Shown: positions 4,320 to 20,044 of the stretch, piece after piece | How the letters are laid out: each line of letters begins with the position of its first letter | Position numbering within the stretch: position 1 is the first letter of the stretch | Source: a virus | Direction: 5' to 3' (one strand) | Virus record (IMG/VR): IMGVR_UViG_3300048834_001270 | Location: 1-36,534 of that record | Length of the DNA: 36,534 bases | Program-made: the position numbers and the translations under genes | Notes under the pieces: generated by a model | Databases searched by the model: none | What the model was told of the DNA's origin: nothing | The model's input: the letters and a program-made list of their open reading frames with translations, nothing else

Positions 4320-4862
4320 TTAGGCTTGCCCTTTGATCAAGCCCTTTTCGACCAGCGCCGCCCGCAATTCGTTGGCGAGGGTGATGACGCTGGCGAGGTC
4401 GGTGGCTGCCGCCTGATTGGCGTTTGCCCGTTGAGCGGTGGGCAGCGCGCCATGGAAGCCGACTTTGGCCGCGGCGTTCCCCCCGGCCTGGGCTTCCCAC
4501 GACAAGCTCCCCGCGTGCCGCTTCAGCCCTCCGTCGGAGACGTTTAAGATCAGGTAGCCGGCCGGGAAGGTCCCGCTGGCGGGGTCGGCGATGACGGTGG
4601 CCGGAGCGATCTGACGCCATGTCCCCGGCGTGCCGGACACGGTGCAAACGAACTCCGCCCCGTTCTGGTCCCGCCAGAAGTCGCCGACGTTCCAGGCCCC
4701 GGAGGTCGGCGGGCCGTTCAGGGTGTTCGGCATCCCGTTCTGGTAGGTCGGGACACGGCGGAAGAGTTCCTCGCTGGCGATGACCCAGTTCTGCTGTGAC
4801 AAAGCGACGAAGCTGGCGGCGTCGGTCACGTTGAATAGGCGTCCGGGGGCGATGGTGCTCAT
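4320..4862 (-). CDS. Phage fibre-like structural protein
   Basis: The protein has 180 residues. The ATG at 4862 overlaps the stop of the tail-tip gene as ATGA (4859-4862), which points to translational coupling. The middle part (about residues 60-85, block WNVGDFWRDQNGAEFVCTVS) resembles short beta-rich repeats of tail or head fibres that end in G-T-W. The C-terminal 50 residues read KVGFHGALPTAQ...LRAALVEKGLI. This is the common ending of phage fibre proteins (K-[IV]-G-F-x-G-x-x-P-x-x-Q, then a helical [LN]xLxxALxxxGLI tail). Position after the tail-tip gene fits a role at the distal end of the tail. The receptor is unknown. It is the last phage structural gene before the RHS gene. Confidence 0.65.
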   Translation of the reverse strand: MSTIAPGRLFNVTDAASFVALSQQNWVIASEELFRRVPTYQNGMPNTLNGPPTSGAWNVGDFWRDQNGAEFVCTVSGTPGTWRQIAPATVIADPASGTFPAGYLILNVSDGGLKRHAGSLSWEAQAGGNAAAKVGFHGALPTAQRANANQAAATDLASVITLANELRAALVEKGLIKGQA

Positions 4863-7153
4863 ACTTTCCTCACGATGATCTCGTCGAAGTTCAGGCTTCG
4901 CAGGCCGGCGAACGAGTAGTAGGCCCGCAGCATGAAATCGGTCTCGGCGCCCAGCAGGGCGACCAGTTGGGTATTGGTGATGGTCCCCGGGCCGGTGTTG
5001 CCGGCGAAGACGATCTCGCCCTTCAGCGTGCCGCCGGTGGTCAGGACCTGAAGAACGGTGGCATCGGCCCGGCAGTCGAGGTTCTGCGTCACGTTGAATC
5101 CGAACCGCAGTTCGCTGGTCGGGGTCCAGTTGACGACGATGTCCTGCCCGGTGGCGTAGGTAGGGTGGGCGCCGTCCTCGAACACGCGGAGGTTGGTGGG
5201 CGCAGCCGGACGCTGGGCGCGGCGTTGGATGGTGACGGCGATCTCCGGGCAGGTCGCCAAGTCGAGTTCCTGCGCAAGCAGGTAGGGCTGCTCCTTGAAG
5301 GTGGCGGTTCCCTCGGGCAGGTCGGCGGTCCAGGTGAGGGGCTTTTCGAGGCCCAACTGGAGCACGTAGGCCGTAGCCCCGCTGGCGTGCGTCTCGGCCC
5401 GGGTCCCGAACCACTCCCGCAGCACTTTCAGCGTGTACCGCTTCGGGCCGGTGAGCTGGGCGTCGTAGCCGACCAGAATCTCGTTCCCGATGAAGACCTG
5501 GAGAGGCTGCGTCGTGGTTGCCTCTTCGAGGGTGGTTTCCTCCAGGTCCCAGTCGTCACCGATGAAGGTGATGTCGATCGAGGCCTCGGCCAGGGTCCCC
5601 GCGTCGAGGCCCGCGTTCAGGGTGCCCTTCATGGCGAAGGACGAGCCCCCGGCGACCTGGACAAACGAGTCGGTCGTCCGCTCCCAGTAGGCGTGGAACC
5701 CGTTTGTCAGCGGGTCGCCTCGGACCGGCAGGAAGATCAGCGACGGCTTGGCCTCGCGGAGATAGCCGTAGGGCAGTTCGATGGCGACGTTGGCCAGGAG
5801 GGGCTGGGCGGAGTACTCGCCCTCCGGTTCCACGTCATCGGGTGCAACGGCGGTGGGAATGGCGTTCAGCCAGCCCCGGTCCTCCTTCCAGCGGAGGGCG
5901 ACCTCGGGTGAGTCGGGTCTGTCGACCGTCAGTTCGGCGATCCGGACCTTCAACGCGGTCAGCCCGGCGGCGGTGTGCGTCAGCGTGACGAGGTCGCCGA
6001 CCTGGACGCCGGCCAGGACCGAGCGCTTCACGCGGGCTGTGCCCGTCATCACGGGCAGGGCCGCCTGCCGCCCGAGGCTCGCCGCAATCCGCCAGGCGAC
6101 GGCCTGCTGCGTCACCCACGGGCGTTCCGCGCTGCGGGTTCGGGTGCTGCCCGTGAGCGCGAAGTTCCCCCGGTCCCGGAACGAGACACCGTCAGCGGTC
6201 CAGGCCTTCTCGCGGTTGGTGAACTTCACCGTCAGGAGGTTGTAGGTGCTTTCCCAGCCACCAGCATCCACGTCGGGCGGGTCGGTGAAGTCGTCCTCGT
6301 CCCAGGCCACGGTTGCCTCGCCATCGCGCACGAGGCGCAGCCCGATCTTGCCCGTGGCGGGGTCGATGACGGGGAAGGCGTCGATGTTCTCGATCAGGGA
6401 GCCAAGAACCTGGTTGAACGAGGTCGGCGAAGTCAGGACGGGCGAAATGCCCATGCCTTCCGCGGCGAGGGTGGCAGCGACGATACCGAGGGCGGTCTGG
6501 TCGAGGTGTGACGCCGGCAGCCCGAGGCCGAACGCCTCGGAGGACCAGAGCTCCGCGAAGACGGCGACCGGGTTCGCGTCATGGCCGATCAGTGCCGAGC
6601 CCGCCATCCACGGAACCACCGGAGCCCTCCGTAGGACGAACTCCATGTTGGGCATCGAGGTCTTGTTGGCCCCGAGGAACAGGTCCACGACCACGTAGCA
6701 CTGGCGGCGGTAGGCGGGATGGACGACGCCGCTGGCGGCGAGGTTGGCGTCGAGGGGCTGCGTCGACGTGCCCCAGTAGAAGGTGATGGTGCCGCGGTCC
6801 GGGATGGTGATCGCGGTCGAGTCGGAGGCTCCCCGCTCGACGGGGCCGGTCCACACCACGTCATCGTCGAAGAGGATCTCGTCGAGCCCGTCGACCAGCC
6901 CGTGACAGACGATGGCGGCGGCGCGGGCGTAGTAGTTGAAGCCCACCGTTTCCTTCTTCTTGCCGACCTTCTTCTTGATGGGCTTCGAGCGGACGTCCCA
7001 CGACTCCGAAATCCAAGTCACGCCGAGCTTCGCGATGCCAGCGAAGTACGGCAGCGGGCGCCCCTGTTCGTTGGTGTTGGTGCGCTTGGCGTCAACACCC
7101 AGGGGTTCCTGCGGGGTCGCTTCCCTCAGATCGTTGGAGGCACCGAAGCCCAT
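4859..7153 (-). CDS. Large phage tail-tip protein (gpJ-like / Phage-tail_3 type)
   Basis: The protein has 764 residues. The start at 7153 lies inside the NlpC/P60 gene (28 bp overlap). The N-terminus (about 1-180) contains RPLPYFAGIAKLGVTWISES and a Lys-rich loop (KKKVGKKKE). It continues with a region that asks for a 'generic' interface (VCHGLVDGLDEILFDDDVVW), a pattern shared by gpJ-like host-specificity proteins and the putative tail proteins of siphophages. Residues 230-420 resemble the gp27/gpJ baseplate-hub domains; 600 to the end is beta-rich and may be fibronectin-like (PAAPTNLRVFEDG). The order NlpC/P60, then this protein, then a fibre is the standard lambda/GTA-like tail-tip order. 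It would form the hub below the tail tube. The tube genes are absent from this window. Confidence 0.75.
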   Translation of the reverse strand: MGFGASNDLREATPQEPLGVDAKRTNTNEQGRPLPYFAGIAKLGVTWISESWDVRSKPIKKKVGKKKETVGFNYYARAAAIVCHGLVDGLDEILFDDDVVWTGPVERGASDSTAITIPDRGTITFYWGTSTQPLDANLAASGVVHPAYRRQCYVVVDLFLGANKTSMPNMEFVLRRAPVVPWMAGSALIGHDANPVAVFAELWSSEAFGLGLPASHLDQTALGIVAATLAAEGMGISPVLTSPTSFNQVLGSLIENIDAFPVIDPATGKIGLRLVRDGEATVAWDEDDFTDPPDVDAGGWESTYNLLTVKFTNREKAWTADGVSFRDRGNFALTGSTRTRSAERPWVTQQAVAWRIAASLGRQAALPVMTGTARVKRSVLAGVQVGDLVTLTHTAAGLTALKVRIAELTVDRPDSPEVALRWKEDRGWLNAIPTAVAPDDVEPEGEYSAQPLLANVAIELPYGYLREAKPSLIFLPVRGDPLTNGFHAYWERTTDSFVQVAGGSSFAMKGTLNAGLDAGTLAEASIDITFIGDDWDLEETTLEEATTTQPLQVFIGNEILVGYDAQLTGPKRYTLKVLREWFGTRAETHASGATAYVLQLGLEKPLTWTADLPEGTATFKEQPYLLAQELDLATCPEIAVTIQRRAQRPAAPTNLRVFEDGAHPTYATGQDIVVNWTPTSELRFGFNVTQNLDCRADATVLQVLTTGGTLKGEIVFAGNTGPGTITNTQLVALLGAETDFMLRAYYSFAGLRSLNFDEIIVRKV

Positions 7154-7632
7154 CGTGGTCGGAAGTGGTTGGTCAGGAGGTTGCGGTAGGTGGGGTCATC
7201 AATCGTGGACTGGATGACCCCGTGCCCGCGCAGGCAGTGGACGAAGTCCCCAGCAGGCGATGTGACGAGGCCCAGGTGGTGGGCCACGCCGTGGCCGAAG
7301 CGGAAGCACAGCAGGTCGCCTTCGAGCAGCGGCGACAGTGGGTCCGGCGGCTCGTCGACCGGCCATTCCTCGAAGCGCCCGTCTTGCCGGAGCCAGGTCA
7401 CGAGCAGGCTGGTTGGGGCGTGGCGTCCGGCGTCGATGGTGTACGGCCCGGTGAGGACGAACTCGATGACCCCCGCATCGATCAGGATGGCCGCCGGCAG
7501 GTTCACGCAATCGACGCCGGCCCCCTTGATGCGGGCGTGGGGAACGAACGGTGTCCCGATCCACTCCCGGGCGATTGCGGCGATCCGGGCGCGGAGGTCT
7601 GGCGTGAGTTCGAGCGACAGAGTCGCGGTCAT
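7126..7632 (-). CDS. NlpC/P60-family tail-associated peptidase
   Basis: The protein has 168 residues. The ATG at 7632 is chosen because GGAGGAGG lies 6 bases upstream and because it overlaps the stop of the preceding gene fragment (ATGA, 7629-7632). Longer in-frame extensions to 7809 run through the insertion junction and are not supported. The papain-like NlpC/P60 pattern is visible: the Cys nucleophile is C42 in GVDCVNL, the catalytic His is probably H119 in VAHHLGLV, and hydrophobic beta strands lie on both sides. Such proteins sit at the siphophage tail tip and help breach peptidoglycan during DNA entry, or help tail-tip assembly. The next gene downstream is the tail-tip protein, as in lambda-like and GTA-like clusters. 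Confidence 0.85.
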   Translation of the reverse strand: MTATLSLELTPDLRARIAAIAREWIGTPFVPHARIKGAGVDCVNLPAAILIDAGVIEFVLTGPYTIDAGRHAPTSLLVTWLRQDGRFEEWPVDEPPDPLSPLLEGDLLCFRFGHGVAHHLGLVTSPAGDFVHCLRGHGVIQSTIDDPTYRNLLTNHFRPRWASVPPTI

Positions 7633-7721
7633 TTCTTGCCTCCTCCGATGTCGGGCGTGCGCATGCCCTTGAGGGTGATGTTGCGGGAGACGCTGCGGTG
7701 CCCGGCCCGGGCGACAAACAT
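7629..7721 (-). pseudogene. C-terminal remnant of a phage tail gene, cut by the RHS insertion
   Basis: An open frame of 30 codons ends in RNITLKGMRTPDIGGGKK and overlaps the NlpC/P60 start as ATGA, exactly as the other genes of this operon couple. The frame is closed by a TGA immediately upstream of the first ATG, so only a C-terminus remains. In GTA-like and many siphophage clusters this slot is held by a DUF2163/BR0599-type tail protein, but the fragment is too short to prove the family. It marks the left phage/RHS junction at about 7700-7721. Confidence 0.5.
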
Positions 7722-7922
7722 TCAAGGCGATAAGCGCCAATGATACTTGTGTGTACGGTGAGAAATGCCCTTGCAGGCTCTGCCGGCGTCGCGTACCCAG
7801 TGGACCCATCGTCCGCGAGATGGTTGTAAAAACCGCGTGGATGGCTTCGGAATCAACAAGGAGTCGTATCAGAGGTACTCGTTCTCACCATACCCTGGCT
7901 CGACCATCGCCCTACCGCCCGA
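7722..7922. other. Junction and upstream region of the RHS gene
   Basis: These 201 bases lie between the broken tail gene and the RHS start, and no gene is supported. They must contain the promoter of the plus-strand RHS gene. I see no convincing -35/-10 pair and no Shine-Dalgarno sequence before the ATG at 7923. Base composition is less GC-rich than the phage genes on the left. Confidence 0.4.
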
Positions 7923-10900
7923 ATGAAGACAACCGTCGTATTGCCCCTGCTAGCCATCGCACGCGGGTTCATCCTTTCGATGCTCTGCTGGGCAGCTCAA
8001 GCGGCCGAACCAGAGTCAAGGCCAGTTAGGCAGGTCGCCGAGCCACCTGCGGCAAGCGCACCGAGGGACGAAGCTTTGGAACGCCCGTTGGCTGCGGTGC
8101 AGCGGTGGTCCGCCGTCCCCGCCCTCGGGCCTGCGTCGGCCCTGCGCCCAGCTCCCAACTCGGCCGTCGATGCCGAGGAATCCGCCGAGCTTTCCGAGAT
8201 CTATCGTCTGGTCCGCGAAGCCACGGAGGCGGTGCCTCCTCAAGCCGAGGACTGGGGCATCCGAGTGCGGGCCATCGAGTTCGAGCAACGCATTGCCCTG
8301 GAGGATTTCCTCACCAAGCATCCCAATTCCACCTGGGCTCCCGACCTTCATGTGCAGTTAGGCAAGATCGGGTCACGGCGGGGCAACTATACCAGGGCGC
8401 TAACGCACTTCCATGCGGCTTATGAAGCGACCAAAGCCATGCAGGATGAACCCGGGCCCGGCATCGCGGCGGAGGCGGCCGAGGGATTGGCATGGCTGCT
8501 GGCGCTTACCGGCCGTATCGCCGAATACCGGGCCCTGGCGACGGAATACTGGGGTGCGCGACCGGTTCGGCCATCCGGCGACTGGGGGCGAGCGCAGGAA
8601 CTGGCGAGTTGGGCCGAACGATACCCGAGCGAGGCCTACAAGTGCGGTCTGTACGGTCTGGATCAGCTCGGCCAACTGACCCAGCCTGGCAAGTACGATT
8701 CGACCGCTCTGGTCGAAACCGAATCGTCACCGGCTGGCTTTTCCATCGCGGAGCTTCTGCGTGTAGGTGAGAAGGTGGGTCTTCGACTTCGAGCGGTGGG
8801 CATCCCCGACTTCGAGAATCTGCCGATCCCGGCGGTCATCCACTTGGGAGTCGACCACTACATCGTTGTTCGGGAGCGACGTGGGGCGTTTGTGGAAGTG
8901 CTCGATCCGGTTCGGTTTGGACCGCGCTGGCTAACGATTCCGGAACTGGCGGCGGACGCCACCGGGGCGGCGATCGTGGCGGCCGACGCGCCGCTAACGG
9001 GAACCATTCCGCTGCCGGCCGACGACGCGGATGCGCTACGAGGTCGTTGCCATCAACCACTTCCACCCGATCACGACGACCAGTCGTGTCCTGAGGACGA
9101 TCCCTGCTGTCCAGACGGTTCCCCCGGCGGAGGAGGGGGTGGCGGTAGTTCAGGACGTGGGGGAAGCGGTTGTATCGGTTGCCGGTCGGCCGTCAGCGAT
9201 GGCCACGGCATGGTGACTTGGCGCGTGAGCGAGCCCTACCTGAACGTTTGGCTGGTCGACACCCCTTTGGTGTACAGGTCCGCCATCGGACCCGACGTGG
9301 TGCTTCAAGTCAGCGTGACCGAACGTTTCGGCACCAACGTCGTGGATGGTCTACCGCGCTATGGTGCCAGCCTCGGCGGGGGGGCTTCGGGCAGCACTTG
9401 GACCTGTTCCTGGTTTTCCTACGTGGTTGTCGATCCCAGCGGCAACCAGGTGGATGTGATGCTCCGAAGCGGGGGCTGGGCCACCTTCACCTATGCCGCC
9501 GGGGCCACGAACAGCGCGGTGAACTTCCTTCACAACGCCCGGCTCGAAAAGAACGCCGCCGGGACGGCCGCCACTCTGTACCGGCTGAGGGAGAGCAACG
9601 GGCGCGTGATCGAGTACAGCGCAAACATCGACGGCGTCTTCTACATGAGCTCGCTGCGCGACACGGCGAGCGGCCCGGCCGTCGTGTTTGGCTACCAGGA
9701 TGGATACCTCAGGCAGGTAACCGCGGCCGATGGTGCTGTCTTCACGTTGAACCGATTCGCTGGAAGCCAGTACTTCTACCGCAACGTGACGAACGTCGCG
9801 ACCTCGTACGGGCAGACGGTCACCTTCGCCAATACCAATGGCCCCTTGCTCTCCATCACGGACCCTGCGGGCATCGTATCGTCCTTCAATTACTCCGCGG
9901 GTGACTACAGCGCGGACACGGCGGTGACCACCCCCTACGGCACGACCGTCTTCTCCATCCTCGGAGAAAACGGCGTTCATGGGATCTTCGACCGCACGAC
10001 TCGGATCACCCATCCGGACGGGGTTCAGGAGTTCTACGGCAAGATCAACATCTACGGTCTCGGCAATTGGCCGGCGTTCTCCGTTACCCCGACGAACACG
10101 CCGCTTCAGTCGACATTGGACACTGGAACGCGCCACGAGCGCAACACGTTCTACTGGAACCGGCAGCAGTTCCTTGGGCTGGAGAGCCTGCCGCTCGCCG
10201 ATTTTAATTGGCCCAGTCACCTCAAGCGCGCCCGTACCCGCCATTGGCTGGCCTCCACCTGGGCGGGCTATACCCATTTCGGCGGCGGCGCGATTTCCTG
10301 GGAGCAGGCGCCCAGCCCGGACGCCGGAACGACCGAGGGCCAGGTCACCTTCTTCAACTACACGGGCAAGCCCAACGCCACCTCCCAAGGCAACCAGGTG
10401 CTCCCGGCCGTCGAGGCGCGGGTGATGCCCGATGGCTCCACGTGGTACAGTGAGACCACCCGGAACTCCGTCGGCCGGCCCACCGCCGTGACGGAGAAGT
10501 GGAACGACGGTTGGACCACGTACACCCGCAGTCGGAGCACACAGTATGACACCAATGGTCTAGATGTTGTCAGGAACCAGGATTTCGACGGCGCCGTCAC
10601 CGGCTTCTACTATGCACCAGCCCGCCCGGGGTTGCCAGAGCGCGCCACCAATGCCCTCGGGGAAGTCACCTACGTTGTCTACGACGCCTCGAACCGCGTG
10701 TCGACGATTCAAACCCCCGCCGGGCTCCTGACCACTCGAACGTACTTCGCCGGCAACCACGCCGACAACAACCAGCGCTGGCGGTTGGATCGAAGCGTGG
10801 ATTCTAACGTGTCCTCCGGCGTCCCGATCGCCACGAATCTCTACACTTGGTTGACCGGGAACGTTCGCACCGAGACCGACCCCAGAAATCTGACGCGCAC

Positions 10901-13691
10901 CTTCATCTTCGACGGGTTGAATCGTCTGACGCGAATCGACTACAACTCGGATTCCTCCTACGAGGTCTTCGCCTACACCAACGGCGTTGGAACCAAGCTC
11001 TTGGATCGGACGTACCACCGGGACCGCGGTGGATTTGTCCGAACCTGGCAGTACGACAGCCTGCGGCGCGTGACGGCCGAGACCGATCCGCTCGGACGGG
11101 TGAAGTACCTCGAGTATTGCGACTGCGGCGATCAGCCTCGCACGGTGGTGGAGGCGTACGGCACCGCGCTGGCGCGCACCACCACATTCGTTTACGACAC
11201 ACAGGGCAACCTCCGCACCAACAACCTTCCCGAGGGCTCCTCGGTCCTGTTCACGTACGACCCGCTCCAAAGAGTCCGAGTGCGTACCGACAGCTTCGAG
11301 TCGGTGACCAACGTCTACGACAACCTCGGACGGCTGGTGGTCGCCTCGAACGCCCTCGGGCGCATTCAAGGCCAGGGGTACGACGCGGCTGGTCGCGTCA
11401 CCACGCAGACCAACGCCAACGGGGTTGCCCTTGTCATGAGCTACGATGCGGCGGGCCGTCTGCGCACTCGCACCGCCCCGGACGGTGGCGTCGAAAGCTG
11501 GGGTTACAGCACGAACATCGTAGGGCCGACGCGATACACCAACCAGATCGGGAAGTTGACGCAGTTTGCGTATGATCCCCGCGGGCTGAGGACGAACGAG
11601 ATCCAAGTCGGCGTCTGGACAAACTCGTTCGGATACGCCCCGGTCGGAGACCTGGTCACCCTGTCGGATGGCAAGTCCCAGACCACGACGTGGGTGTATG
11701 ACCGCGACGGCCGGGTGAAAGAGAAGTGGTACCAGGGGCAACCAAATCCGGACCTGATTTACACCTACGACGCACTGGGGCGGCTCAGCTTCCGATTCAC
11801 CCGCACCGGCACGGGTGCGAGCACGAACGGATACCACACCGGCTACACCTACGACTCGGTCGGCAACGTGACCTATGTCGACTACCCCGCCGGTACGACG
11901 GACCTCCAGTTCGCCTACGACGCGCTGTATCGGCTGACGAACATGGTCGATGCCGTCGGAACGACTCGGTACACCTACACGCTGGGTGGCGGCAATGAGA
12001 TCGTGGCCGAGGATCCAGCCTTTTGGACCAGCGCCAAGGTCACCGTAACCAACCGCCTCGGGCGCCGCGTGGGCTTGGGGGTTCAGCAGCCGAGCGGCGT
12101 TTGGAATCAGGCCCACAGCTACACCAGCGGTCGGCTGGGGAGCATCGCCAGCCCCCCTGGGACCTTCACCTACGCCTACAGCCCAGCCAGCGGGAGCGGC
12201 TTTGCAGCGCGGCTCGTTCAAAAGCTGACCCTTCCGACCACGAGCTACATCACGAACGCCTACGACAGCGTGGGCCGCGTGACGAGCACTCAGCTCCGCA
12301 CCAGCGCCGCGTCGGTCCTGAATCAGCACGAATACCTGTACAATGCCGCCGGCCAACGGATGGTGGGCACGCACACCAACGCCTCCATGTCGGCCTGGAA
12401 TCGGCGTATCGGGTACAGCTATGACAATGCCGCGCAGTTGGTGACGGCGTGGACGACCAACTCCAGCGGGGTCCAGGTTGCCGCGGAGTGCTGGGGGTAC
12501 CTTTACGATCCGGCGCAGAACCTCAACCAGCGTACCAACAACGCCTCTGGCTCCAGCATCAGCACCTTCACGGTCAATGCCCTCAACCAGCAGACCGTCG
12601 CACTCGGGAATGCGCAGACCTTCGACCGTCGCGGCAATCTCACGGCCTACAGCAACCGGACGCTGACCTACGATGCCGAGAACCAGTTGATCCAGTACGA
12701 GATCTCCGCCGCTTATCGAACCGTGTTCGGGTACGACGGCAGGAGACGCTTGCGCACCCGGACCGAGTACAACTGGAACGGCGCGTCGTGGAGCTTCGCC
12801 TCCCAGACCCGCTACCTCTACGACGGGATGCGAGTGGTGCAGGAGCGGGACAACAGCAACACCCCGACTGTGGCCTACACCCGAGGACCGGACCTCAGCG
12901 GCACGCTTGAAGGCGCCGGCGGCATCGGAGGACTGCTCTCCCGGAGCCGCTGGAACGGTTCAGCATGGTCGACCAATCACTTCTACCATGCCGACAGCAA
13001 CGGCAACGTCAGCTACCTGGTGAATGATTCCCAGGGCCACGGTGCCAGCTACAAGTACGGCCCGTACGGGGCCACGCTGGCGACCAGTTCCGGGACGCTA
13101 AGCGCCTCGGACAACATCTACCGGTTCAGCAGCAAGGAGGTGATAACGGTCGACGCAGTCTACTACTACGGATACCGATTCTACGACCCGGCAAGGCAGG
13201 TTTGGTTCAACAGAGACCCCCTGATGGAGGGAGGTGGGATGAATTTGTATGCCGTTGTTGCTAACGACCCCATCGGGCTAATCGATCCATTTGGACGGTT
13301 GGCGGAGAGTCCAATAACCGTGTCGCTCAAACTCGCCTGCAGGGGGGGCGCTCGGGTGTTCCCGGGCATAGGCACGGCAATCATTGTTGGAGAGATCGGG
13401 ACCGCTGGAATCAAACTAGGAACCGACCTCCTCTATCCCGACCCCGGATCCTCGCCAGCGCCCCTACCCCCAGAAGTCCAGAAGCGAAGAGACGCGTGCA
13501 AGAGACCCCTTCTAAAGCCACAGCCGCCGGCGCAGTGCGGACCTCGGCGAGAGGACTATACCAGGGCGAAGCAAGAATGTATTAACGAGTGCATCGAACT
13601 GCTACCCACCAAGGATGACGGGTTTGAGTTTTTTAATTGTGTGAATGATTGCATGGAGCGGAAGGGCTTCGGAAGTGGTGTTCCTCACTGA
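7923..13691 (+). CDS. Secreted RHS-repeat protein with N-terminal C39-like peptidase domain
   Basis: The protein has 1922 residues. The start is supported by a signal peptide (residues 1-27, hydrophobic core and AQA/A cleavage site) rather than by a ribosome site. Domains in order: Pro/Ala-rich linker to about 85; helical, TPR-like segment at about 90-210; C39-like papain-fold segment at about 225-350 with a possible triad C241 (YKCGLYGL), H312 (LGVDHYIVV) and D328 (VEVLDPV); Gly/Cys linker at about 375-425; many YD repeats to about 1740; the RHS core (YYGYRFYDPA, WFNRDPL, NLYAVVANDP). The last ~130 residues after DPFGR are the variable tip and end with a twin CX3C pattern. The usual C39 oxyanion Gln six residues before the Cys is not seen, so activity is uncertain. 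RHS shells are known to encapsulate toxic tips. This gene runs against all neighbouring phage genes and replaces the tail-tube region. Confidence 0.9.
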   Translation: MKTTVVLPLLAIARGFILSMLCWAAQAAEPESRPVRQVAEPPAASAPRDEALERPLAAVQRWSAVPALGPASALRPAPNSAVDAEESAELSEIYRLVREATEAVPPQAEDWGIRVRAIEFEQRIALEDFLTKHPNSTWAPDLHVQLGKIGSRRGNYTRALTHFHAAYEATKAMQDEPGPGIAAEAAEGLAWLLALTGRIAEYRALATEYWGARPVRPSGDWGRAQELASWAERYPSEAYKCGLYGLDQLGQLTQPGKYDSTALVETESSPAGFSIAELLRVGEKVGLRLRAVGIPDFENLPIPAVIHLGVDHYIVVRERRGAFVEVLDPVRFGPRWLTIPELAADATGAAIVAADAPLTGTIPLPADDADALRGRCHQPLPPDHDDQSCPEDDPCCPDGSPGGGGGGGSSGRGGSGCIGCRSAVSDGHGMVTWRVSEPYLNVWLVDTPLVYRSAIGPDVVLQVSVTERFGTNVVDGLPRYGASLGGGASGSTWTCSWFSYVVVDPSGNQVDVMLRSGGWATFTYAAGATNSAVNFLHNARLEKNAAGTAATLYRLRESNGRVIEYSANIDGVFYMSSLRDTASGPAVVFGYQDGYLRQVTAADGAVFTLNRFAGSQYFYRNVTNVATSYGQTVTFANTNGPLLSITDPAGIVSSFNYSAGDYSADTAVTTPYGTTVFSILGENGVHGIFDRTTRITHPDGVQEFYGKINIYGLGNWPAFSVTPTNTPLQSTLDTGTRHERNTFYWNRQQFLGLESLPLADFNWPSHLKRARTRHWLASTWAGYTHFGGGAISWEQAPSPDAGTTEGQVTFFNYTGKPNATSQGNQVLPAVEARVMPDGSTWYSETTRNSVGRPTAVTEKWNDGWTTYTRSRSTQYDTNGLDVVRNQDFDGAVTGFYYAPARPGLPERATNALGEVTYVVYDASNRVSTIQTPAGLLTTRTYFAGNHADNNQRWRLDRSVDSNVSSGVPIATNLYTWLTGNVRTETDPRNLTRTFIFDGLNRLTRIDYNSDSSYEVFAYTNGVGTKLLDRTYHRDRGGFVRTWQYDSLRRVTAETDPLGRVKYLEYCDCGDQPRTVVEAYGTALARTTTFVYDTQGNLRTNNLPEGSSVLFTYDPLQRVRVRTDSFESVTNVYDNLGRLVVASNALGRIQGQGYDAAGRVTTQTNANGVALVMSYDAAGRLRTRTAPDGGVESWGYSTNIVGPTRYTNQIGKLTQFAYDPRGLRTNEIQVGVWTNSFGYAPVGDLVTLSDGKSQTTTWVYDRDGRVKEKWYQGQPNPDLIYTYDALGRLSFRFTRTGTGASTNGYHTGYTYDSVGNVTYVDYPAGTTDLQFAYDALYRLTNMVDAVGTTRYTYTLGGGNEIVAEDPAFWTSAKVTVTNRLGRRVGLGVQQPSGVWNQAHSYTSGRLGSIASPPGTFTYAYSPASGSGFAARLVQKLTLPTTSYITNAYDSVGRVTSTQLRTSAASVLNQHEYLYNAAGQRMVGTHTNASMSAWNRRIGYSYDNAAQLVTAWTTNSSGVQVAAECWGYLYDPAQNLNQRTNNASGSSISTFTVNALNQQTVALGNAQTFDRRGNLTAYSNRTLTYDAENQLIQYEISAAYRTVFGYDGRRRLRTRTEYNWNGASWSFASQTRYLYDGMRVVQERDNSNTPTVAYTRGPDLSGTLEGAGGIGGLLSRSRWNGSAWSTNHFYHADSNGNVSYLVNDSQGHGASYKYGPYGATLATSSGTLSASDNIYRFSSKEVITVDAVYYYGYRFYDPARQVWFNRDPLMEGGGMNLYAVVANDPIGLIDPFGRLAESPITVSLKLACRGGARVFPGIGTAIIVGEIGTAGIKLGTDLLYPDPGSSPAPLPPEVQKRRDACKRPLLKPQPPAQCGPRREDYTRAKQECINECIELLPTKDDGFEFFNCVNDCMERKGFGSGVPH

Positions 13692-13709
13692 ACTTTCTCC
13701 CGTTCCCAA

Positions 13710-13952
13710 ATGAGATCTGAAGTCGCACACCACTTGGCTCAGAGGTTGTCGAGAGTTCAAACTGAACTTAATAATACCCTGAGATATGTCGAGGAGCATT
13801 GCGATCGCGAGGAGTTCTTGACGCTCCGGAAAGCGATTGGTACTGCCATGGCGGAGATTCACCTCGAGGTCTTGTCGCCGATATACCGGGATTACCCTGC
13901 ACTGGAACCTGAGGCACTGCGAAGACCCTCTGGACCCAGTCGAAATGGATAG
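13710..13952 (+). CDS. Small helical protein directly downstream of the RHS gene (candidate partner/immunity)
   Basis: The protein has 80 residues and starts 18 bp after the RHS stop on the same strand, so it is probably co-transcribed. No good Shine-Dalgarno sequence is seen. The sequence is mostly helical and acidic/basic mixed: LAQRLSRVQTELNNTLRYVE, then EEFLTLRKAIGTAMAEIHLE, then LSPIYRDYPAL. It resembles a small conserved family of about 70-80 residues that I recall as stand-alone hypothetical proteins (E-E-F-x-x-[LY]-R-x-A-[IV]-G...M-x-E-I-x-L-E). No enzymatic motif is visible. The position after an RHS tip is where immunity genes sit, so an immunity role is an inference from location only. 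Confidence 0.6.
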   Translation: MRSEVAHHLAQRLSRVQTELNNTLRYVEEHCDREEFLTLRKAIGTAMAEIHLEVLSPIYRDYPALEPEALRRPSGPSRNG

Positions 13953-14404
13953 GCGCATCCTCGATTCTGTGATCGAGAACGCCGCGCCGTTTGGCCCAAC
14001 AGAGATCCGCTGAAGGAACAGGGGGAGGTATCAAACCTTACGCCTTTGCTGCCAACGAGCCCGTCGGACACGTTGATTCCTTTGGGCGGAAGGGCTTCGA
14101 GGCTCGACTGGAGAAGACGCTCCCACGGGAGCCCGAGCCCACCGTGGCGGTTGCGCTCGATGTTCTCCTCGATGACCACCGGCACGTAGACCAGGTGGGC
14201 GGCGACGCCGTCGCGGGCGGAGGCGGGAATCTCAAAACTGGCGATCTGCCAGACGATCATCACCACGCCCGCACCTTTCAGGGCCGCCTCGCGGCCGGGC
14301 GTGCGGTCGTAGGCCCCGTCATCGAGCAGCACGGGAACACCGGCCATCGACGGGTGCGCGACGAGGGCGGCTTTCACCGCGGGTTGGATCTCCCAGAGGT
14401 TCAT
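13892..14404 (-). CDS. Tail terminator/completion-like gene, 3' end replaced by RHS sequence
   Basis: The ATG at 14404 overlaps the stop of the upstream gene as ATGA. Only the first ~105 residues (MNLWEIQPAV ... SSLEAL) look like a phage protein: an N-terminal helix, then beta strands (VVMIVWQIASFEI, HLVYVPVVIEENIERN) and a final helix. This architecture and the position after the HK97-gp10-like gene fit a tail terminator or completion protein of the DUF1834/gp37 kind, but the family assignment is weak. From about 14089 down to the stop at 13892 the frame is antisense to the displaced RHS tip, so the last ~65 residues are junk fused at the insertion junction. The product is probably non-functional. 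Confidence 0.5.
   Translation of the reverse strand: MNLWEIQPAVKAALVAHPSMAGVPVLLDDGAYDRTPGREAALKGAGVVMIVWQIASFEIPASARDGVAAHLVYVPVVIEENIERNRHGGLGLPWERLLQSSLEALPPKGINVSDGLVGSKGVRFDTSPCSFSGSLLGQTARRSRSQNRGCAYPFRLGPEGLRSASGSSAG
13977..14090 (+). pseudogene. Displaced, frameshifted RHS core tip
   Basis: The plus strand encodes ERRAVWPNRDPLKEQ in one frame and then GGGIKPYAFAANEPVGHVD and SFGR in the next frame. Together these are the RHS core signature (W-x-N-R-D-P-L...G-G-x-N-x-Y-x-F-x-x-N-x-P-x-x-x-x-D-x-x-G). The frame change falls at the GGGGGAGG run at about 14020-14027. The second RHS core signature in this element differs from that of the intact gene, so it is a remnant of another RHS tip, of the kind left by tip exchange. 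It ends where phage sequence resumes at about 14090. Confidence 0.65.
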
Positions 14405-15123
14405 TTCTTGAGGCCGGACGTTCGAGCCGCGGAGTTCGTGGCCTTCTCGATCGAGGCGAGTATGGCTTGGCGACGGGCGCCCATAGCGTTGGAGAGGACG
14501 CGGTCGACGTAGGCGTCCCCGGCCCACTCCGAACGGTTCTTCATCTTCACCGACGGGTTCATGGAACCGGTGCGATCCTCGACCGTCCCGGTGACGGCAT
14601 GCTGGAGGAGCCACTCCGGGACGTTCCCGCCGAGGCGGGTCACCGTGGGCACCCAGCCGCCCTTGGCGCGGCCGACGTGGGTCTGGGCCTCGCGGATGTA
14701 GTCGCGGACCTGCGGGGCATCCGGCGTGGCGACCTTCGCGGAGCGGGTCACCCGACCGCGCTTGTCACGGCGCGAGCGGTGGAGTTCCGCGGAGAACGGC
14801 AGGACCTGGAAGCCAGCGAAGCCGCCCTGCTTGAAGCGCGAGAACACGACTTCGAGGCCGGCGTAATCGCGTTTGCGGATCAGCTTCTTGATGCTGGGAG
14901 CTTCGAAGTCCGAGGCCCGGATCGGCGTGACCGCCCGTCGGATGTCGCGGGCCACGGCCTTGCGACCCTGCGCCCGCGTCCCCGGCGGCGTGAACTGAAC
15001 GAGCTTCCGACCGAGCAGCATCGACTGCTGCCGGACCGCGCCACGGGCGTCCTTTCCGAGCGTGAGGACGTACCGGGTGACGGCATCGTTGAACCCGTGG
15101 GCGTTGACCGTCAGATCAAGCAC
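14401..15123 (-). CDS. Head-tail connector / minor tail protein (HK97 gp10-like)
   Basis: The protein has 240 residues, starts with GTG at 15123 and overlaps the upstream gene by 8 bp. It is basic, with many Arg/Lys residues. It begins with hydrophobic/helical sequence (GFNDAVTRYVLTLGKDARGA) and has the segment LVQFTPPGT, which matches the conserved [LV]-x-x-x-T-P-x-x-T/G of HK97-gp10-like and related phage head-tail connector proteins. The C-terminal half is helical and rich in Ala/Arg (DAYVDRVLSNAMGARRQAIL). It lies between the putative head-tail stopper and the truncated terminator-like gene, the expected place in siphophage head-tail joining clusters. Confidence 0.6.
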   Translation of the reverse strand: MLDLTVNAHGFNDAVTRYVLTLGKDARGAVRQQSMLLGRKLVQFTPPGTRAQGRKAVARDIRRAVTPIRASDFEAPSIKKLIRKRDYAGLEVVFSRFKQGGFAGFQVLPFSAELHRSRRDKRGRVTRSAKVATPDAPQVRDYIREAQTHVGRAKGGWVPTVTRLGGNVPEWLLQHAVTGTVEDRTGSMNPSVKMKNRSEWAGDAYVDRVLSNAMGARRQAILASIEKATNSAARTSGLKK

Positions 15124-15457
15124 GGGCCACCTCCACGGTGAAGCGAATCAGGAGGTTGTGGGGCGAATCCTCGACCGCCACCACGCGGAAACTGCGACCA
15201 TTCGAGTCCGTGAGTTCGTCGCCGACGGCGATCTGGGTGTCTGCGAGGTCGGAGCGGAGGATGTGGAGGCTGTCCTCCGAACGTTCCTCCGCCCCGAACG
15301 CGTACTCGCCCTCGGCTGCCGGCCGGGCCTTGAAGCCCGGCTGGTGATCCGCCAGCGCACGGAACAGCAGGCCGCTCCGGACGTGAGTCACGGTACGACC
15401 GCGAACCGCGAGCTGGGACTGAATCCCAGCCATGCGTGCCTGTTCGGTCAGCGTCAC
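15116..15457 (-). CDS. Putative head-tail joining (stopper/adaptor) protein
   Basis: The protein has 113 residues. The GTG start at 15457 overlaps the previous stop as GTGA. The N-terminus is helical (EQARMAGIQSQLAVRG) and the C-terminal half is a small beta barrel-like segment: ILRSDLADTQIAVGDELTD, then RSFRVVAVEDSPHNLLIRFT. The wording 'I..GD.....G..[FY].V..v.......l..f.v' is characteristic of phage head-tail joining proteins (lambda gpFII / HK97 gp7-like). Assignment rests on this pattern and on position two genes after the capsid protein. Confidence 0.55.
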   Translation of the reverse strand: MTLTEQARMAGIQSQLAVRGRTVTHVRSGLLFRALADHQPGFKARPAAEGEYAFGAEERSEDSLHILRSDLADTQIAVGDELTDSNGRSFRVVAVEDSPHNLLIRFTVEVARA

Positions 15458-15666
15458 GGGGTTTCGGCTGGCTTGGCCTTCTTGGGCTTGGTGGTGGCGA
15501 GGCGCTGGTGCTCGGCGAGCAGCCAGGCCACATCGCGGTTGCGCCGAGCGAGACGGCGAATCCGGGAGTCCCGGCCCTTCTCGCCCTGCGCCCGCGTGAG
15601 GTGCTTGAGGTCGATGGCGGTCAGCGCCACCGGCTCGGGGTATGGGTCAACCTTGGGAGTGCTCAT
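15454..15666 (-). CDS. Small basic protein after the capsid gene
   Basis: The protein has 70 residues, starts with ATG at 15666 and is coupled to the next gene by GTGA. It is rich in Lys/Arg (RDSRIRRLARRNRDVAWLLAE) with a Lys/Pro C-terminal tail (TTKPKKAKPAETP). Family not recognised. A small gene in this slot between capsid and head-tail joining genes is common in siphophages and may help capsid decoration or joining, but nothing in the sequence shows this. Confidence 0.55.
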   Translation of the reverse strand: MSTPKVDPYPEPVALTAIDLKHLTRAQGEKGRDSRIRRLARRNRDVAWLLAEHQRLATTKPKKAKPAETP

Positions 15667-15689
15667 GGCGTGGTGGCCGTGCGCAGCAC

Positions 15690-16715
15690 TTAGCCGTTGG
15701 TGCGGATGCAGACGGCCCCGACGCGGTTGGCCGTGCCCAGCACGAGGTTCCAGTTGGCGATGGTGCCCAGCTCCGCGTTGCTGGGGCTTTCCGCGGCCGG
15801 GGTCCCGACCCACTTCATGCCGTTCAGGTGCAGCACGAACCGGGTCCGGTCGTAGATGATCTCGTTGTTGAGCCCGAACTTCTTCTCCATCTGGAGCGCG
15901 GCCACGTCGACCACGTCGGTCTTCTGCGGCTTCTCCCCCTTGGCGATGATCCCCTTGGCCAGCAGGTAGGTGTCGTACACGAACCCGTTGGTGGTGCCGG
16001 CGCGCACCAAGGCCTCCGAAGTGTAGATGGGGATGCCGCGGTAGGTGCGGATGGTCCAAGGCCCGTGAGAGGCCTTGTCGAAGCTGGTCTCGTCGGCCAG
16101 TTCGAGCGCGGCGAGGATGGTCGGATGGAGCCAGAGGGCGCCGTCCATGAGGTCATCGGCGAGCTCGCCCATAAGGCTCTTGGCCTGGATGAACAGCTCG
16201 ATGCCCATGAGCTGGGCCGAGGTGGCATCGGTGCCGGACTCGTCGAAGGCATCGACCCGGACCGGCTTCAGGGGAGCCGCCACGCCGGAGGCACCGGTGG
16301 AACCGAAGGCCCCGCGGACCATCGCGAGCAGGGTCTTCTGGCGCTGCTTGAGCCGGCGCTGCGCCATCTGAGCGACGATCTCGCCGACGGGCTCCTCGCC
16401 GGACAGTTGGGCGGCGAACGCCGTGGCCGAGCTCTTGCAGACCCGGTTGCAGGCGACGGCCTTCATCTGGCCGCTGGTGATCTTGTTGTCGACCGTGGGC
16501 TCGGCGTTCTCGACCTGGATCTCGTCGTCCTGGTCGGTGATGTCCTTGAAGAACGGGATGGTGGCGACTTCACCAGGACCGGACGCGAGTTCGGTGGCCT
16601 TGGGGTTGTCGACCACCACTCCGGAGTTCAGGAGCGTGGGAAACGTGGCCTGCTTCTCCCGCATCGTCTGAAGCCAGATGTCGGGAATCCACAGATCGCT
16701 GATGGTGGTGGGCAT
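15690..16715 (-). CDS. Major capsid protein
   Basis: The protein has 341 residues and starts with ATG at 16715. It begins with a P-x-[IL]-x-D-[LI]-W-x-P-D-[IV]-W segment (ISDLWIPDIW) and continues with FPTLLNSGVVV, VATIPFFKDITDQDDE and DDLMDGALWLHPTILAALE. It ends with the beta-rich WNLVLGTANRVGAVCIRTNG. This profile matches HK97-fold coat proteins of the 'major capsid protein' families found behind S49 protease/scaffold pairs: pole-to-pole beta strands, conserved [LF]-H-P. Length (340 aa) is normal. It lies 33 bp downstream of the scaffold-like gene and precedes the head-tail joining genes. The mature start after protease cleavage cannot be deduced. Confidence 0.8.
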   Translation of the reverse strand: MPTTISDLWIPDIWLQTMREKQATFPTLLNSGVVVDNPKATELASGPGEVATIPFFKDITDQDDEIQVENAEPTVDNKITSGQMKAVACNRVCKSSATAFAAQLSGEEPVGEIVAQMAQRRLKQRQKTLLAMVRGAFGSTGASGVAAPLKPVRVDAFDESGTDATSAQLMGIELFIQAKSLMGELADDLMDGALWLHPTILAALELADETSFDKASHGPWTIRTYRGIPIYTSEALVRAGTTNGFVYDTYLLAKGIIAKGEKPQKTDVVDVAALQMEKKFGLNNEIIYDRTRFVLHLNGMKWVGTPAAESPSNAELGTIANWNLVLGTANRVGAVCIRTNG

Positions 16716-16748
16716 GTTCGTGAGTGGCTGAGGTTCGGGAGACGGGGT

Positions 16749-17180
16749 TCAGGCGTTGAGCTTGGGGGACAGTTCGCGGATGGAGCCGACGCCCTTGGCG
16801 GCGAGGACGCGCTGGGTGGGAGTGAGGTCAGGGTCAGCCGGGGCCTCCTTGTGCTCCGCGGCCTTGGGTCGGAGGCCGAGCTTCTGAACCTCGGCAGCGA
16901 CGGCCTTGCCAAAGTCCGCCATCTTGGCGGTCAGGGCGGCGTTCTCCGCTTTCACTCGGATCAATTCCTCACCAGCCACCTTCGCGGCAGTTTCGAGCGT
17001 GGCGACTCGGGCCACGAGTTCGTCGGCACGTTGAGTGGCAGACGTGGCCTGGGCGCCGGCAGCCTCCAGGAGTTCGCTGGCTGCGGTCAGTTCGCCGTGG
17101 AGCCTCGCATTCTCGACCGTGAGGCGTTCGTTGGTTGCCAGGACATCGTCCTGGTCTTGGATGTTGGGCTTGTCGGACAT
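16749..17180 (-). CDS. Scaffold-like coiled-coil protein
   Basis: The protein has 143 residues. ATG at 17180 is the first start after the protease gene. Longer frames reach into the protease and are out-of-frame shadows. Residues 10-95 form a long Ala/Glu/Leu coiled coil (NERLTVENARLHGELTAASE ... ELIRVKAENAALTAKMADFG). The C-terminal part (LTPTQRVLAAKGVGSIRELS) is compact. Capsid scaffold proteins are short, charged and coiled-coil, and sit between the head protease and the capsid gene. Both apply here, so the protein probably guides prohead assembly and is then degraded by the S49 protease. A copy of the 17 bp dispersed motif lies in the 41 bp gap upstream. Confidence 0.6.
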   Translation of the reverse strand: MSDKPNIQDQDDVLATNERLTVENARLHGELTAASELLEAAGAQATSATQRADELVARVATLETAAKVAGEELIRVKAENAALTAKMADFGKAVAAEVQKLGLRPKAAEHKEAPADPDLTPTQRVLAAKGVGSIRELSPKLNA

Positions 17181-17207
17181 GGCTTTGGATGTGCGTTCAG
17201 CGGAGTT

Positions 17208-17224
17208 GGGAACGTTACGCTTCA
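17208..17224 (-). repeat. Dispersed 17 bp motif, copy 1
   Basis: The plus strand reads GGGAACGTTACGCTTCA. On the minus strand its first three bases are the TGA stop of the S49 protease gene, so the repeat begins exactly at the end of that gene. The plus-strand flank forms a short inverted repeat (CTTCA CTTGC TGAAG). It lies in the gap before the scaffold-like gene. Confidence 0.85.
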
Positions 17225-18037
17225 CTTGCTGAAGCGACGGGCGACGGCCTTCGCGTAGGCGAGGTCTCCGAGGACATCGACGAGCCCGTTGCGCTTGGCC
17301 TGGTACCCGTCGAACACCTGCCCCTGCATGGCGCCCTCGGGGATGCTTTCCCGGGCGCGCAGCACGTCGGCGCGGAAGACGTCGAAGGCCCGCTGGGCTT
17401 GGCGGGTGAACTCGGAGGCGTGGTCGGGCGTGATCTCGGTCCCCGGCATGCCCGCGGCCTTGAAGGCGCCCTCCTTGTTGGTGAACACCCGGACCTCGAT
17501 TCCGGCGTTGGCCAGCATCCGGTGATAATCCACCACAGAGACGTAGGCCCCGATGCTGCCCACGAGCGCGGAACGGGAGGCGACGACGGCCTTGGACTGC
17601 GAGCCGATCCAGTAGGCCAGGCTGCACATCGTGCCGCCCGCCCACGTCACGGTGGGCTTGGTGGATTTGAAGACCGCGTCGGCAATCTCCGCGCCACCGA
17701 CCGAGAACCCACCGGGCGAATTGACGTCGAGCACGATGGCCTTCGCCTCCGGGTCGGCTTCGAGGCGGCGGAATGCACTGAGCACCTCGGCGCTGTCCTC
17801 GAAACCGTCGAAGATCAGCTCGCCGAGGTCAGGTCGGTAGGCCAGCACCCCGCTGATTTCGAGCACGCCGATGCCGCCTTCGACCGAGGTTCGGGGGGCG
17901 AAGTGCCCTCGGGCCTTGCGCCAGGAATCGGGTTCGGCGGCAGCGGGGGCGAACAGGCCACTGAAGAGTGCCTGCCCGGCGCGGGCCTCAATCAGGGGCA
18001 CCTGACTCGCCAGCTTGGTCAGGAAAGTTTTGAGCAT
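17222..18037 (-). CDS. S49-family head maturation protease
   Basis: The protein has 271 residues and starts with ATG at 18037 inside the 3' end of the portal gene (50 bp overlap). The SppA/S49 fold is clear: VEGGIGVLEISGVL, the strand IVLDVNSPGG, TVTWAGGTMCSLAYWIGSQS with the Ser nucleophile in C-S-L-A-Y, and FTNKEGAFKAAGMPG carrying the candidate catalytic Lys. In lambda-type heads (gpC) this protease trims portal and scaffold and degrades the scaffold after assembly. Here scaffold and protease are separate genes, not nested. The stop codon is supplied by copy 1 of the dispersed motif, so the original C-terminus may differ by a few residues. Confidence 0.85.
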   Translation of the reverse strand: MLKTFLTKLASQVPLIEARAGQALFSGLFAPAAAEPDSWRKARGHFAPRTSVEGGIGVLEISGVLAYRPDLGELIFDGFEDSAEVLSAFRRLEADPEAKAIVLDVNSPGGFSVGGAEIADAVFKSTKPTVTWAGGTMCSLAYWIGSQSKAVVASRSALVGSIGAYVSVVDYHRMLANAGIEVRVFTNKEGAFKAAGMPGTEITPDHASEFTRQAQRAFDVFRADVLRARESIPEGAMQGQVFDGYQAKRNGLVDVLGDLAYAKAVARRFSK

Positions 18038-19568
18038 CGTCGCCCGAGTTGGGAACGTTACGCTTCACTTCGTTTTGCCCCCCTGTGGGAGCCCCCTTTG
18101 CGGAGGCCAAACCGAAGCTCGACATGACCGTTTCGACCGGGATGCCGTGCTCGCCGGCGACCTGCCTGGCGCGGTCCAGGATGTAGTCGATCTCTTCGAA
18201 GAGTTGGTCGGTCTCCCGCCGCCAGGACCGGCCGCGGTTGCCGTAGTGGTCCCGGCGCGTCATCAGGCCGCGGGCGACATCCTCACGCTCCTGAGCCATC
18301 TCCCTGCCGGCATCGATGGTGATCTTGGAAGGGCCGATGAAATCGCACCGCGCCCAGCCCTCGGGCGCGGGGAGGACGCCGGACGCGATCCCGCTGGCGA
18401 TGACCCGCTGCCATGCCGAACGGCCCAACCGGGCGGCGACCTGCTTGCGGCGGTCGAACTTTCGTTGCGCCTTGCCGTTCACCGCCCGCTGGTTGGGGCC
18501 GGTCAGTTTTTCGTCCAGGAAGAAGGCCGGTGGCAGGCCCATCCCCGCCACGAAGCAGCCGGCGAGATAGCTGATGACCTCGATGTTGTTGGCCGGGGCG
18601 CTGGGAGTGTTGACCTGCTTCAGCTCGTGCCCTTCCGGAACGGTGGGAATGTCGCCCGCAACCAGGTCGGCGACGGTGAAACTGCGTTGCTTGGCGTTGT
18701 CCTCCGCTGGCGGTTCCTCCTCGGTGGGGGCCTCACCAGCGGGTTCCGGTGGGGACCCCCACGGGTTCTCCTCCAAGGGCGATCCCTGAATGGCGAGGGT
18801 CAGGACGGTGGAGAGCTTCGAGAGGACCTTCTGGAACCCCTTGATGTCGCCCGCGTCCCGCATGTCGTTGGCCCCGCGACGGATGGGGCTCATCCCCCGG
18901 TATTGGGTGTACCGCTCCAGGTCGAAGAGGTGAACGAGCGCGTTGGCGTCGAGCAGGGTCTTCCCGTCGAGCCAGTAGCCTTGGACCCGGCCCTGCGTGT
19001 CGAGTTGGACCCCGTCGAAGATGCGGTCATCCGCGACCGTCGGCTTGTCGATCCGCCAGGACTCCAAGAGTTGGACCTGCGGGAATCCGGCCTCGTCCGT
19101 CCAGAGGGCGAACACCTCGCCGTCGGTGTCGAGGTAGAATGACCCCAGCCGTTGCAGGTCCCAGAAGTCGAACCGGCCGGTGAAGTCGGCCCGCTCCGCC
19201 CACTCGTCGAAGAAGGTGTTGGCGGCCTCGTTCCATTTCCGGTCCAAGGTCGCCGCCCTGGGCACCATCGGGGTCGAGTAGTTGGCCACCAGATCGGTGG
19301 CGTAGAACACCATGCCGACGTTGTCCCAGAGGTAACGGGCGACCGAGGCCAGTTGAAGCCGGTTGAACTTCGACAGCAGCCGGTGGACGTAGAGCCCGGT
19401 GGGCGGAATCGGCGTTCGGTGATCGACCGTGTTCAGGGCCTCGAAGTAGTGCCGGACCGGGGTCACCGCAGGCGCCGTGTTCGCCGACGGCTGCGGCGGA
19501 TGGACCTGCGCGGATCGAGTTGAATGCTGCGGGGCCGGCGGGAACAGGCGGCGAAGGAACGGGATCAC
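17988..19568 (-). CDS. Lambda-type portal protein (GpB family)
   Basis: The protein has 526 residues. The GTG at 19568 overlaps the upstream stop as GTGA. Recognisable blocks: YLWDNVGMVFYATDLVANYS in the N-terminal third, WRIDKPTVADDRIFDGVQLD, LVHLFDLERYTQYRGMSPI (the R-G-x-S-P hallmark of lambda portals), a Glu/Pro-rich acidic loop at about 330-360, then GMGLPPAFFLDEKLTGPNQR. The portal forms the dodecameric gate through which the terminase packs DNA. The last ~25 residues (after GGQNEVKRNVPNSGD) are encoded by the dispersed motif copy 2 and its flank, which looks like a late addition to the 3' end. The core is complete. Confidence 0.85.
   Translation of the reverse strand: MIPFLRRLFPPAPQHSTRSAQVHPPQPSANTAPAVTPVRHYFEALNTVDHRTPIPPTGLYVHRLLSKFNRLQLASVARYLWDNVGMVFYATDLVANYSTPMVPRAATLDRKWNEAANTFFDEWAERADFTGRFDFWDLQRLGSFYLDTDGEVFALWTDEAGFPQVQLLESWRIDKPTVADDRIFDGVQLDTQGRVQGYWLDGKTLLDANALVHLFDLERYTQYRGMSPIRRGANDMRDAGDIKGFQKVLSKLSTVLTLAIQGSPLEENPWGSPPEPAGEAPTEEEPPAEDNAKQRSFTVADLVAGDIPTVPEGHELKQVNTPSAPANNIEVISYLAGCFVAGMGLPPAFFLDEKLTGPNQRAVNGKAQRKFDRRKQVAARLGRSAWQRVIASGIASGVLPAPEGWARCDFIGPSKITIDAGREMAQEREDVARGLMTRRDHYGNRGRSWRRETDQLFEEIDYILDRARQVAGEHGIPVETVMSSFGLASAKGAPTGGQNEVKRNVPNSGDDAQNFPDQAGESGAPD
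18051..18067 (-). repeat. Dispersed 17 bp motif, copy 2
   Basis: GGGAACGTTACGCTTCA lies inside the 3' end of the portal frame, 14 bp upstream of the protease start. Similarity to copy 6 extends well beyond the motif: GAGT before it and TTGCCCCC after it on the plus strand, about 45 bp in all. Both copies are translated as VKRNVP[ND]SGD at the end of a gene. Confidence 0.85.
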
Positions 19569-19897: not shown

Positions 19898-19905
19898 GCC
19901 CGAGC

Positions 19906-19922
19906 GGGAACGTTACGCTTCA
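19906..19922 (-). repeat. Dispersed 17 bp motif, copy 3
   Basis: GGGAACGTTACGCTTCA lies between the gpW-like gene and the plus-strand membrane protein gene. It is followed on the plus strand by a hairpin-forming segment GCGTT-CGAG-AACGC. Confidence 0.85.
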
Positions 19923-20044
19923 ACGCTCATCGCGTTCGAGAACGCTGGAGGAGTCTGGAGGACGACCCCGGCCACATCCCCCTCGACACTGTGTCGGTCA
20001 CTGGCAAGTTGCGCGGCGAAGACTACCATCGGGAGGAATCCGAA

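What the first reader, a model, noticed from the sequence alone, without database searches (positions are those of the whole stretch)
7629..14404. RHS element replaces the tail-tube region of a tailed phage
Head genes end at a tail-terminator-like gene whose 3' third is antisense RHS sequence (junction near 14089). Tail genes resume with a 30-codon C-terminal scrap that still overlaps the NlpC/P60 start (junction near 7721). Between them lies a divergent RHS block instead of a major tail protein, tail chaperones and tape measure. Both boundaries fall inside phage genes, which argues for replacement rather than for a natural gene order.
Basis: partly seen in the sequence, partly recalled or inferred. 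Interest (0 to 1): 0.7.

Follow-up and report, generated by a model that had tools for sequence, protein, structure and literature searches.

The report
Toxin locus replaces phage tail genes
In a virus that integrates into Verrucomicrobiota bacteria, a bacterial RHS-type toxin gene sits exactly where the tail-building genes should be; one of the two joints is also found, at the same base, in an independently assembled bacterial genome, so the swap is real and old, and this virus can no longer build its own tail.

Summary
The window is an IMG/VR record of a temperate siphophage whose head and tail-tip genes are collinear with a complete prophage in a related bacterial genome (G014) and with two viral contigs (L003, L002). 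Homology stops at w14091 (inside the tail-terminator gene) and resumes at w7703-7708 (last ~25 codons of a DUF2163/BR0599-type tail gene). The intact prophage has 8.26 kb between these points, including major tail protein, chaperone and tape measure. The window has 6.38 kb instead: a host-type secreted RHS polymorphic toxin (signal peptide, TPR-like helices, C39-like peptidase, RHS core, variable tip), a small candidate immunity ORF and a frameshifted RHS-core remnant. A Verrucomicrobiota MAG (KLAP45) has the same RHS and the same left junction, a different tip, and phage tail sequence beyond it, so misassembly is unlikely. Divergence across the shared junction (RHS dS up to 0.43, tail-tip dS ~0.47) says the replacement is old, yet the tail-tip genes are intact with dN/dS ~0.09. 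Best reading: a tail-less, defective prophage carrying an RHS toxin locus; a tail-borrowing satellite is the main rival. RHS is rare in phages; toxin cargo in prophages is not.

The parts
4320..4862 (-). Last phage gene (180 aa), function unknown; phage homology ends at its stop codon
   Evidence: Collinear in L002, L018, G014; all copies compared end within a few bases of its stop with unrelated flanks beyond
4859..7153 (-). Tail-tip/baseplate protein, GTA-megatron-like, 764 aa, intact
   Evidence: phrog_1101 2.6e-85; NF048004 partial match; dN/dS 0.097 window vs KLAP45
7126..7632 (-). NlpC/P60 phage peptidase, 168 aa, intact
   Evidence: TIGR02219 2.4e-10, below its curated cut-off; intact in all relatives
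7629..7708 (-). C-terminal scrap (~25 codons) of the DUF2163/BR0599-type tail gene; left junction at 7703-7708
   Evidence: Alignment with L002 and L018; G014 homology resumes at 7708; intact gene ~482 aa in L002
7709..7922 (.). Non-phage intergenic segment upstream of RHS, shared with KLAP45 at 86%
   Evidence: 31 of 219 bases differ over 7704-7922, same junction base
7923..13691 (+). Secreted RHS polymorphic toxin, 1922 aa: N-terminal signal-like segment, TPR-like helices (aa 84-240), C39-like peptidase (C241, H312, D328), RHS repeats, RHS core (aa 1712-1791), variable tip (from about w13240)
   Evidence: PF05593, PF03412; TIGR03696, TIGR01643; triad invariant in 26 homologues; model and PDB matches; tip differs from KLAP45
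13710..13952 (+). Small ORF (80 aa) directly after RHS, candidate immunity gene (inferred from position only)
   Evidence: no Pfam match
13986..14089 (+). Frameshifted remnant of an RHS-core end (AVWPNRDPLKEQGEV / KPYAFAANEPVGHVDSFGR), a displaced older RHS terminus
   Evidence: Six-frame reading
14091..14404 (-). 5' two-thirds of the tail-terminator gene (name from position); right junction at 14091
   Evidence: Collinear with intact L003 and G014 genes up to the junction
14401..22181 (-). Head and packaging module, intact: tail-completion-type gene, major capsid protein (15690-16715), S49-type protease, portal, large terminase
   Evidence: phrog_247 5.1e-47; portal_lambda 5.1e-12; collinear with G014

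Best explanation
A temperate siphophage lineage of Verrucomicrobiota in which a chromosomal-type, Sec-exported C39-RHS polymorphic toxin locus replaced the tail-tube block. Shown: the exact replacement, the old left junction shared by two independent genomes, intact head and tail-tip genes, different toxin tips in the two carriers. Inferred: the RHS came from a bacterial chromosome by recombination that deleted from near the start of the major tail gene to the end of the DUF2163 gene; the window lineage later lost a further ~0.7 kb (small gene and tail-terminator end), leaving an RHS-core remnant at the edge. The prophage cannot assemble its own tail, so it is defective for self-transmission and serves as a chromosomal carrier for an RHS toxin that the host exports for competition with other bacteria, its tip being exchanged by the usual RHS recombination.
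For: Homology ends and resumes at single points against three relatives: 8,260 bp in G014 (52773-61032 of the fetched stretch) against 6,382 bp here. The missing stretch codes for major tail protein (phrog_807 1.4e-14), tail chaperone (phrog_1442 1.7e-9), tape measure (phrog_8462 2.3e-33), tail assembly proteins and DUF2163/BR0599. KLAP45 L018:2119-11030 matches w4330-13240 at 92% with the same junction base, and its RHS is followed by a phage fragment (L018:12721-13230 = L003:13317-12796) in the collinear orientation. C39-RHS homologues occur in 62 of 320 genomes of the order, and none of 12 longer neighbourhoods holds genes of this phage. RHS-like matches occur in only 7 of 50,697 phage records, none covering most of this protein, and in 0 of 79 other NlpC phage loci.
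Against: No read mapping; the right junction (w14091) is seen only in this record, KLAP45 having a different right edge. The chromosomal donor RHS locus was not found. Head and tail-tip genes carry no stop codons and tail-tip dN/dS stays near 0.09, which is better preservation than a dead prophage needs; the sign of relaxed selection in the window's other phage genes is mild (84N/95S against 93N/172S, Fisher p=0.014). Export, toxicity and immunity are untested.
Confidence: 0.72

Rival explanations
1. Tail-borrowing satellite: the element keeps its own packaging, head and tail-tip genes, lost the tube genes, and spreads in particles completed with tail parts of a related helper phage, carrying the RHS toxin as cargo (works like a capsid-forming PICI).
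For: Head and tail-tip genes intact; tail-tip dN/dS 0.086-0.097 between the two RHS carriers, like intact phages, over dS of about 0.47, where drift would give several stops per branch. RHS tracts with dS about 0.01 between window and KLAP45 beside flanks differing by 12-14% imply recent exchange between lineages. An intact sibling prophage exists in the host family (G014).
Against: No evidence of excision or particles; no integrase identified in the record; KLAP45 has no capsid gene and no tape-measure homologue that could mark a helper. Recombination with live phages would also keep the flanks intact.
Confidence: 0.15
2. Co-opted tail tip: NlpC, baseplate protein and last gene were kept with the RHS as parts of one delivery device for the toxin.
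For: These genes are intact next to RHS in KLAP45 even though head genes are gone there.
Against: RHS is transcribed divergently, has its own signal-like N-terminus, and its relatives in the order are not beside genes of this phage; no tube is left to deliver anything.
Confidence: 0.06
3. Assembly chimera of a phage contig and a bacterial RHS contig.
For: Metagenomic record; RHS repeats are prone to misassembly; right junction seen once.
Against: Same left junction at the same base in an independent MAG, with 14% divergence in the adjoining non-phage sequence, and collinear phage sequence on the far side of RHS in both; no N in the window.
Confidence: 0.04

Closest known systems
RHS/YD polymorphic toxins with papain-like peptidase domains (PMC3482391)
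   Same: Peptidase domain, RHS repeats and core, exchangeable C-terminal tip, small gene behind it, displaced core remnant
   Different: Lies inside a phage late region in place of tail genes; other members found in the order are chromosomal and away from this phage
MuF polymorphic toxins of temperate phages (PMC5576092)
   Same: Polymorphic toxin encoded by a temperate tailed phage
   Different: MuF toxins are fused to a head/packaging-module protein; this RHS is a separate protein with its own export signal and costs the phage its tail
Capsid-forming satellites, cf-PICI and cf-PISP (PMC13230959)
   Same: Head and packaging genes present, tail-tube genes absent
   Different: Keeps phage replication and tail-tip genes, is 36 kb long, shows no sign of helper interaction; a single-block loss rather than an established satellite lineage
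Siphophages with a GTA-like tail tip (DUF2163-type, NlpC/P60, megatron-like)
   Same: Gene order and families on both sides of the gap
   Different: Tail-tube block missing and replaced

Membership tests
RHS polymorphic toxin | RHS/YD repeats and RHS-associated core domain | tested here: met
   PF05593 1.2e-30, TIGR03696 2.4e-17
RHS polymorphic toxin | Conserved core with variable C-terminal tip | tested here: met
   Window and KLAP45 match to w13240; tips unrelated
RHS polymorphic toxin | Toxic tip with immunity gene | tested here: inconclusive
   80-aa ORF behind RHS, but neither it nor the tip matches a known family; toxicity not testable here
Complete siphophage prophage | Major tail, chaperone and tape-measure genes between tail terminator and tail tip | tested here: not met
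   Present in G014 and in L003/L002, absent here
Complete siphophage prophage | Terminase, portal, protease, capsid | tested here: met
Capsid-forming satellite (cf-PICI-like) | Head genes present, tail genes absent | tested here: inconclusive
   Tube genes absent, tail-tip genes retained
Capsid-forming satellite (cf-PICI-like) | Mobilisation by a helper phage | not testable with these tools
   Needs induction experiments

The most novel reading that the evidence does not exclude
An RHS-carrying, tail-less phage lineage of Verrucomicrobiota that has persisted for a long time as a head-forming element and spreads an exchangeable secreted toxin by borrowing tail parts of intact sibling phages.
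Probability: 0.12. Interest if true: 0.8.

Novelty: new variant of a known kind. Interest (0 to 1): 0.45.

Why it matters
With both intact and swapped versions in hand, it shows a phage losing its tail block to a bacterial toxin locus, and the swap surviving in more than one lineage. If the retained phage genes still work, it would be a route by which competition toxins become phage or satellite cargo; if not, it is a clear case of a prophage turned into the site of a toxin locus.

Tried and rejected
Other RHS-bearing viral contigs: two scans found none. Capsid gene in KLAP45: none. A helper tape measure in KLAP45: none. Phage genes beside other C39-RHS loci: none in 12. The 26-nt repeat w13646/w14074 was considered as a recombination site; it is not a clean duplication and was not used. 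The second RHS gene (w69-4139) as phage cargo: absent from 11 related viral records, homologues chromosomal at 43-60%, and it lies beyond the common phage end; treated as probable host flank. The toxin tip and candidate immunity ORF gave no family match. The S/N count for one small gene used a wrong frame and was left out of the sums.

Full report
What was checked. The window is a complete IMG/VR record of 36,534 bases. Phage genes are on the minus strand. PHROGs, Pfam and NCBIfam give a lambda-type portal, a major head protein, an NlpC/P60 phage peptidase and a GTA-megatron-like tail protein. On the plus strand, w7923-13691 codes for a 1922-aa RHS protein with a C39-like peptidase domain.

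The gap. Searches with the tail-tip protein and the major capsid protein found close relatives among viral contigs. BLASTN places the end of homology to L003 at w14091 and the start of homology to L002 at w7703. L003 and L002 come from the same sample and overlap each other at 91% in and behind the tape measure, so between them they cover the whole missing stretch. A complete prophage in a genome of the same family as KLAP45 (G014, contig 3) is collinear with the window on both sides and has 8,260 bases between the points that match w14091 and w7708. Those bases code for the end of the tail terminator, a small gene, the major tail protein (phrog_807), a tail chaperone (phrog_1442), an 802-aa tape measure, two tail-assembly proteins, a gene without a family match, and the DUF2163/BR0599-type protein. 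The window keeps only about 104 codons of the tail terminator and the last ~25 codons of the DUF2163-type gene.

Not an assembly artefact. The best match to the RHS in the genome collection is on contig CAUJJW010000164.1 of Verrucomicrobiota MAG KLAP45. It matches w4330-13240 at 92%, which carries it across the left junction, and the junction lies at the same base. On the other side of the KLAP45 RHS is a 510-base phage fragment running from the small gene into the start of the major tail gene, in the collinear orientation. So in both genomes the RHS lies between the tail-terminator/major-tail region and the end of the DUF2163-type gene. The right edges differ: about codon 18 of the major tail gene in KLAP45, inside the tail terminator in the window. 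The window's right junction therefore rests on one assembly.

Age and mosaic history. Identity between window and KLAP45 is mostly 83-91% in the tail-tip genes and 86% in the non-phage 219 bases next to the junction, then 99.7% over the first 1.2 kb of RHS, then alternates. RHS segments reach dS 0.43, 0.38 and 0.31, others are near 0. The oldest RHS segments thus have about the same divergence as the tail-tip genes (dS 0.47 for the baseplate gene), and parts of RHS were made alike later by recombination. The two RHS carriers are not each other's closest relatives in the tail-tip genes, so either the swap is about as old as this phage group or the flanks have recombined since.

Constraint. Window versus KLAP45 dN/dS is 0.097 (baseplate), 0.088 (NlpC) and 0.086 (last gene), as between intact phages. 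A simple simulation gives on average 5-9 stop codons per branch in these three genes at 6-10% neutral change; none is seen. Counting changes unique to one genome, the window's other phage genes have a mild excess of nonsynonymous changes over two control phages (84N/95S against 93N/172S, p=0.014). This count is crude (parsimony, few sequences, unequal relatives) and only suggests recent relaxation. Recombination with live phages can also keep genes intact, so constraint does not by itself prove that the tail-less form is functional.

The RHS. An alignment of 26 N-terminal regions keeps C241, H312 and D328 invariant, consistent with the catalytic triad of a C39-type peptidase. The model of residues 1-440 is confident over about 80-380: TPR-like helices, then a papain-like fold. 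PDB matches have weak E-values but include a TPR domain of YbgF (TMt 0.70) and a papain-like cysteine protease toxin (TMt 0.63). Homologues occur in 62 of 320 genomes of the order and are not beside genes of this phage in 12 longer neighbourhoods. The tip after w13240 is unrelated to that of KLAP45.

Reading. The most economical account is a defective prophage whose tail-tube block was lost to a bacterial RHS toxin locus, with the locus kept and its tip exchanged. A tail-borrowing satellite is the main rival and is not excluded. Polymorphic toxins in temperate phages are known (MuF toxins, PMC5576092), as are elements with head but no tail genes (PMC13230959), and RHS toxins with peptidase domains (PMC3482391); the combination seen here was not found in the papers searched, which is a limited library.

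Noticed in passing
window 27982, 27818, 22184, 19906, 18051, 17208 (minus strand): Six copies of GTGAAGCGTAACGTTCCC (up to 3 mismatches), all on the coding strand, several at gene ends (one begins at the stop codon of the protease gene). Three copies in L007 and two in a G014 remnant, none in L003 or the complete G014 prophage; none in shuffles. Resembles stoperator-type repressor sites of mycobacteriophages (from memory, untested).
   Followed up: partly
window 69-4139 (-): A second, unrelated YD-repeat protein behind the last phage gene; homologues (43-60%) are chromosomal in the same order. It aligns to residue 1350 and then meets a stop at w69, while homologues lie in open frames of about 1950-2100 aa.
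   Followed up: partly
G014 contig 3, about 60-136 kb (L034-L038): One complete prophage and several decayed ends of the same phage in one stretch; two ends border inverted copies of what looks like a metal-efflux operon.
   Followed up: no
window 4320 and the matching end in nine or so relatives: Phage homology ends within a few bases of the last gene's stop codon, with unrelated sequence behind it each time; suggests many integration sites.
   Followed up: partly
window 7923-9129 versus L018:5713-6919: The first 1.2 kb of RHS is 99.7% identical between two genomes whose flanks differ by 12-14%; the change starts almost exactly at the RHS start codon.
   Followed up: partly
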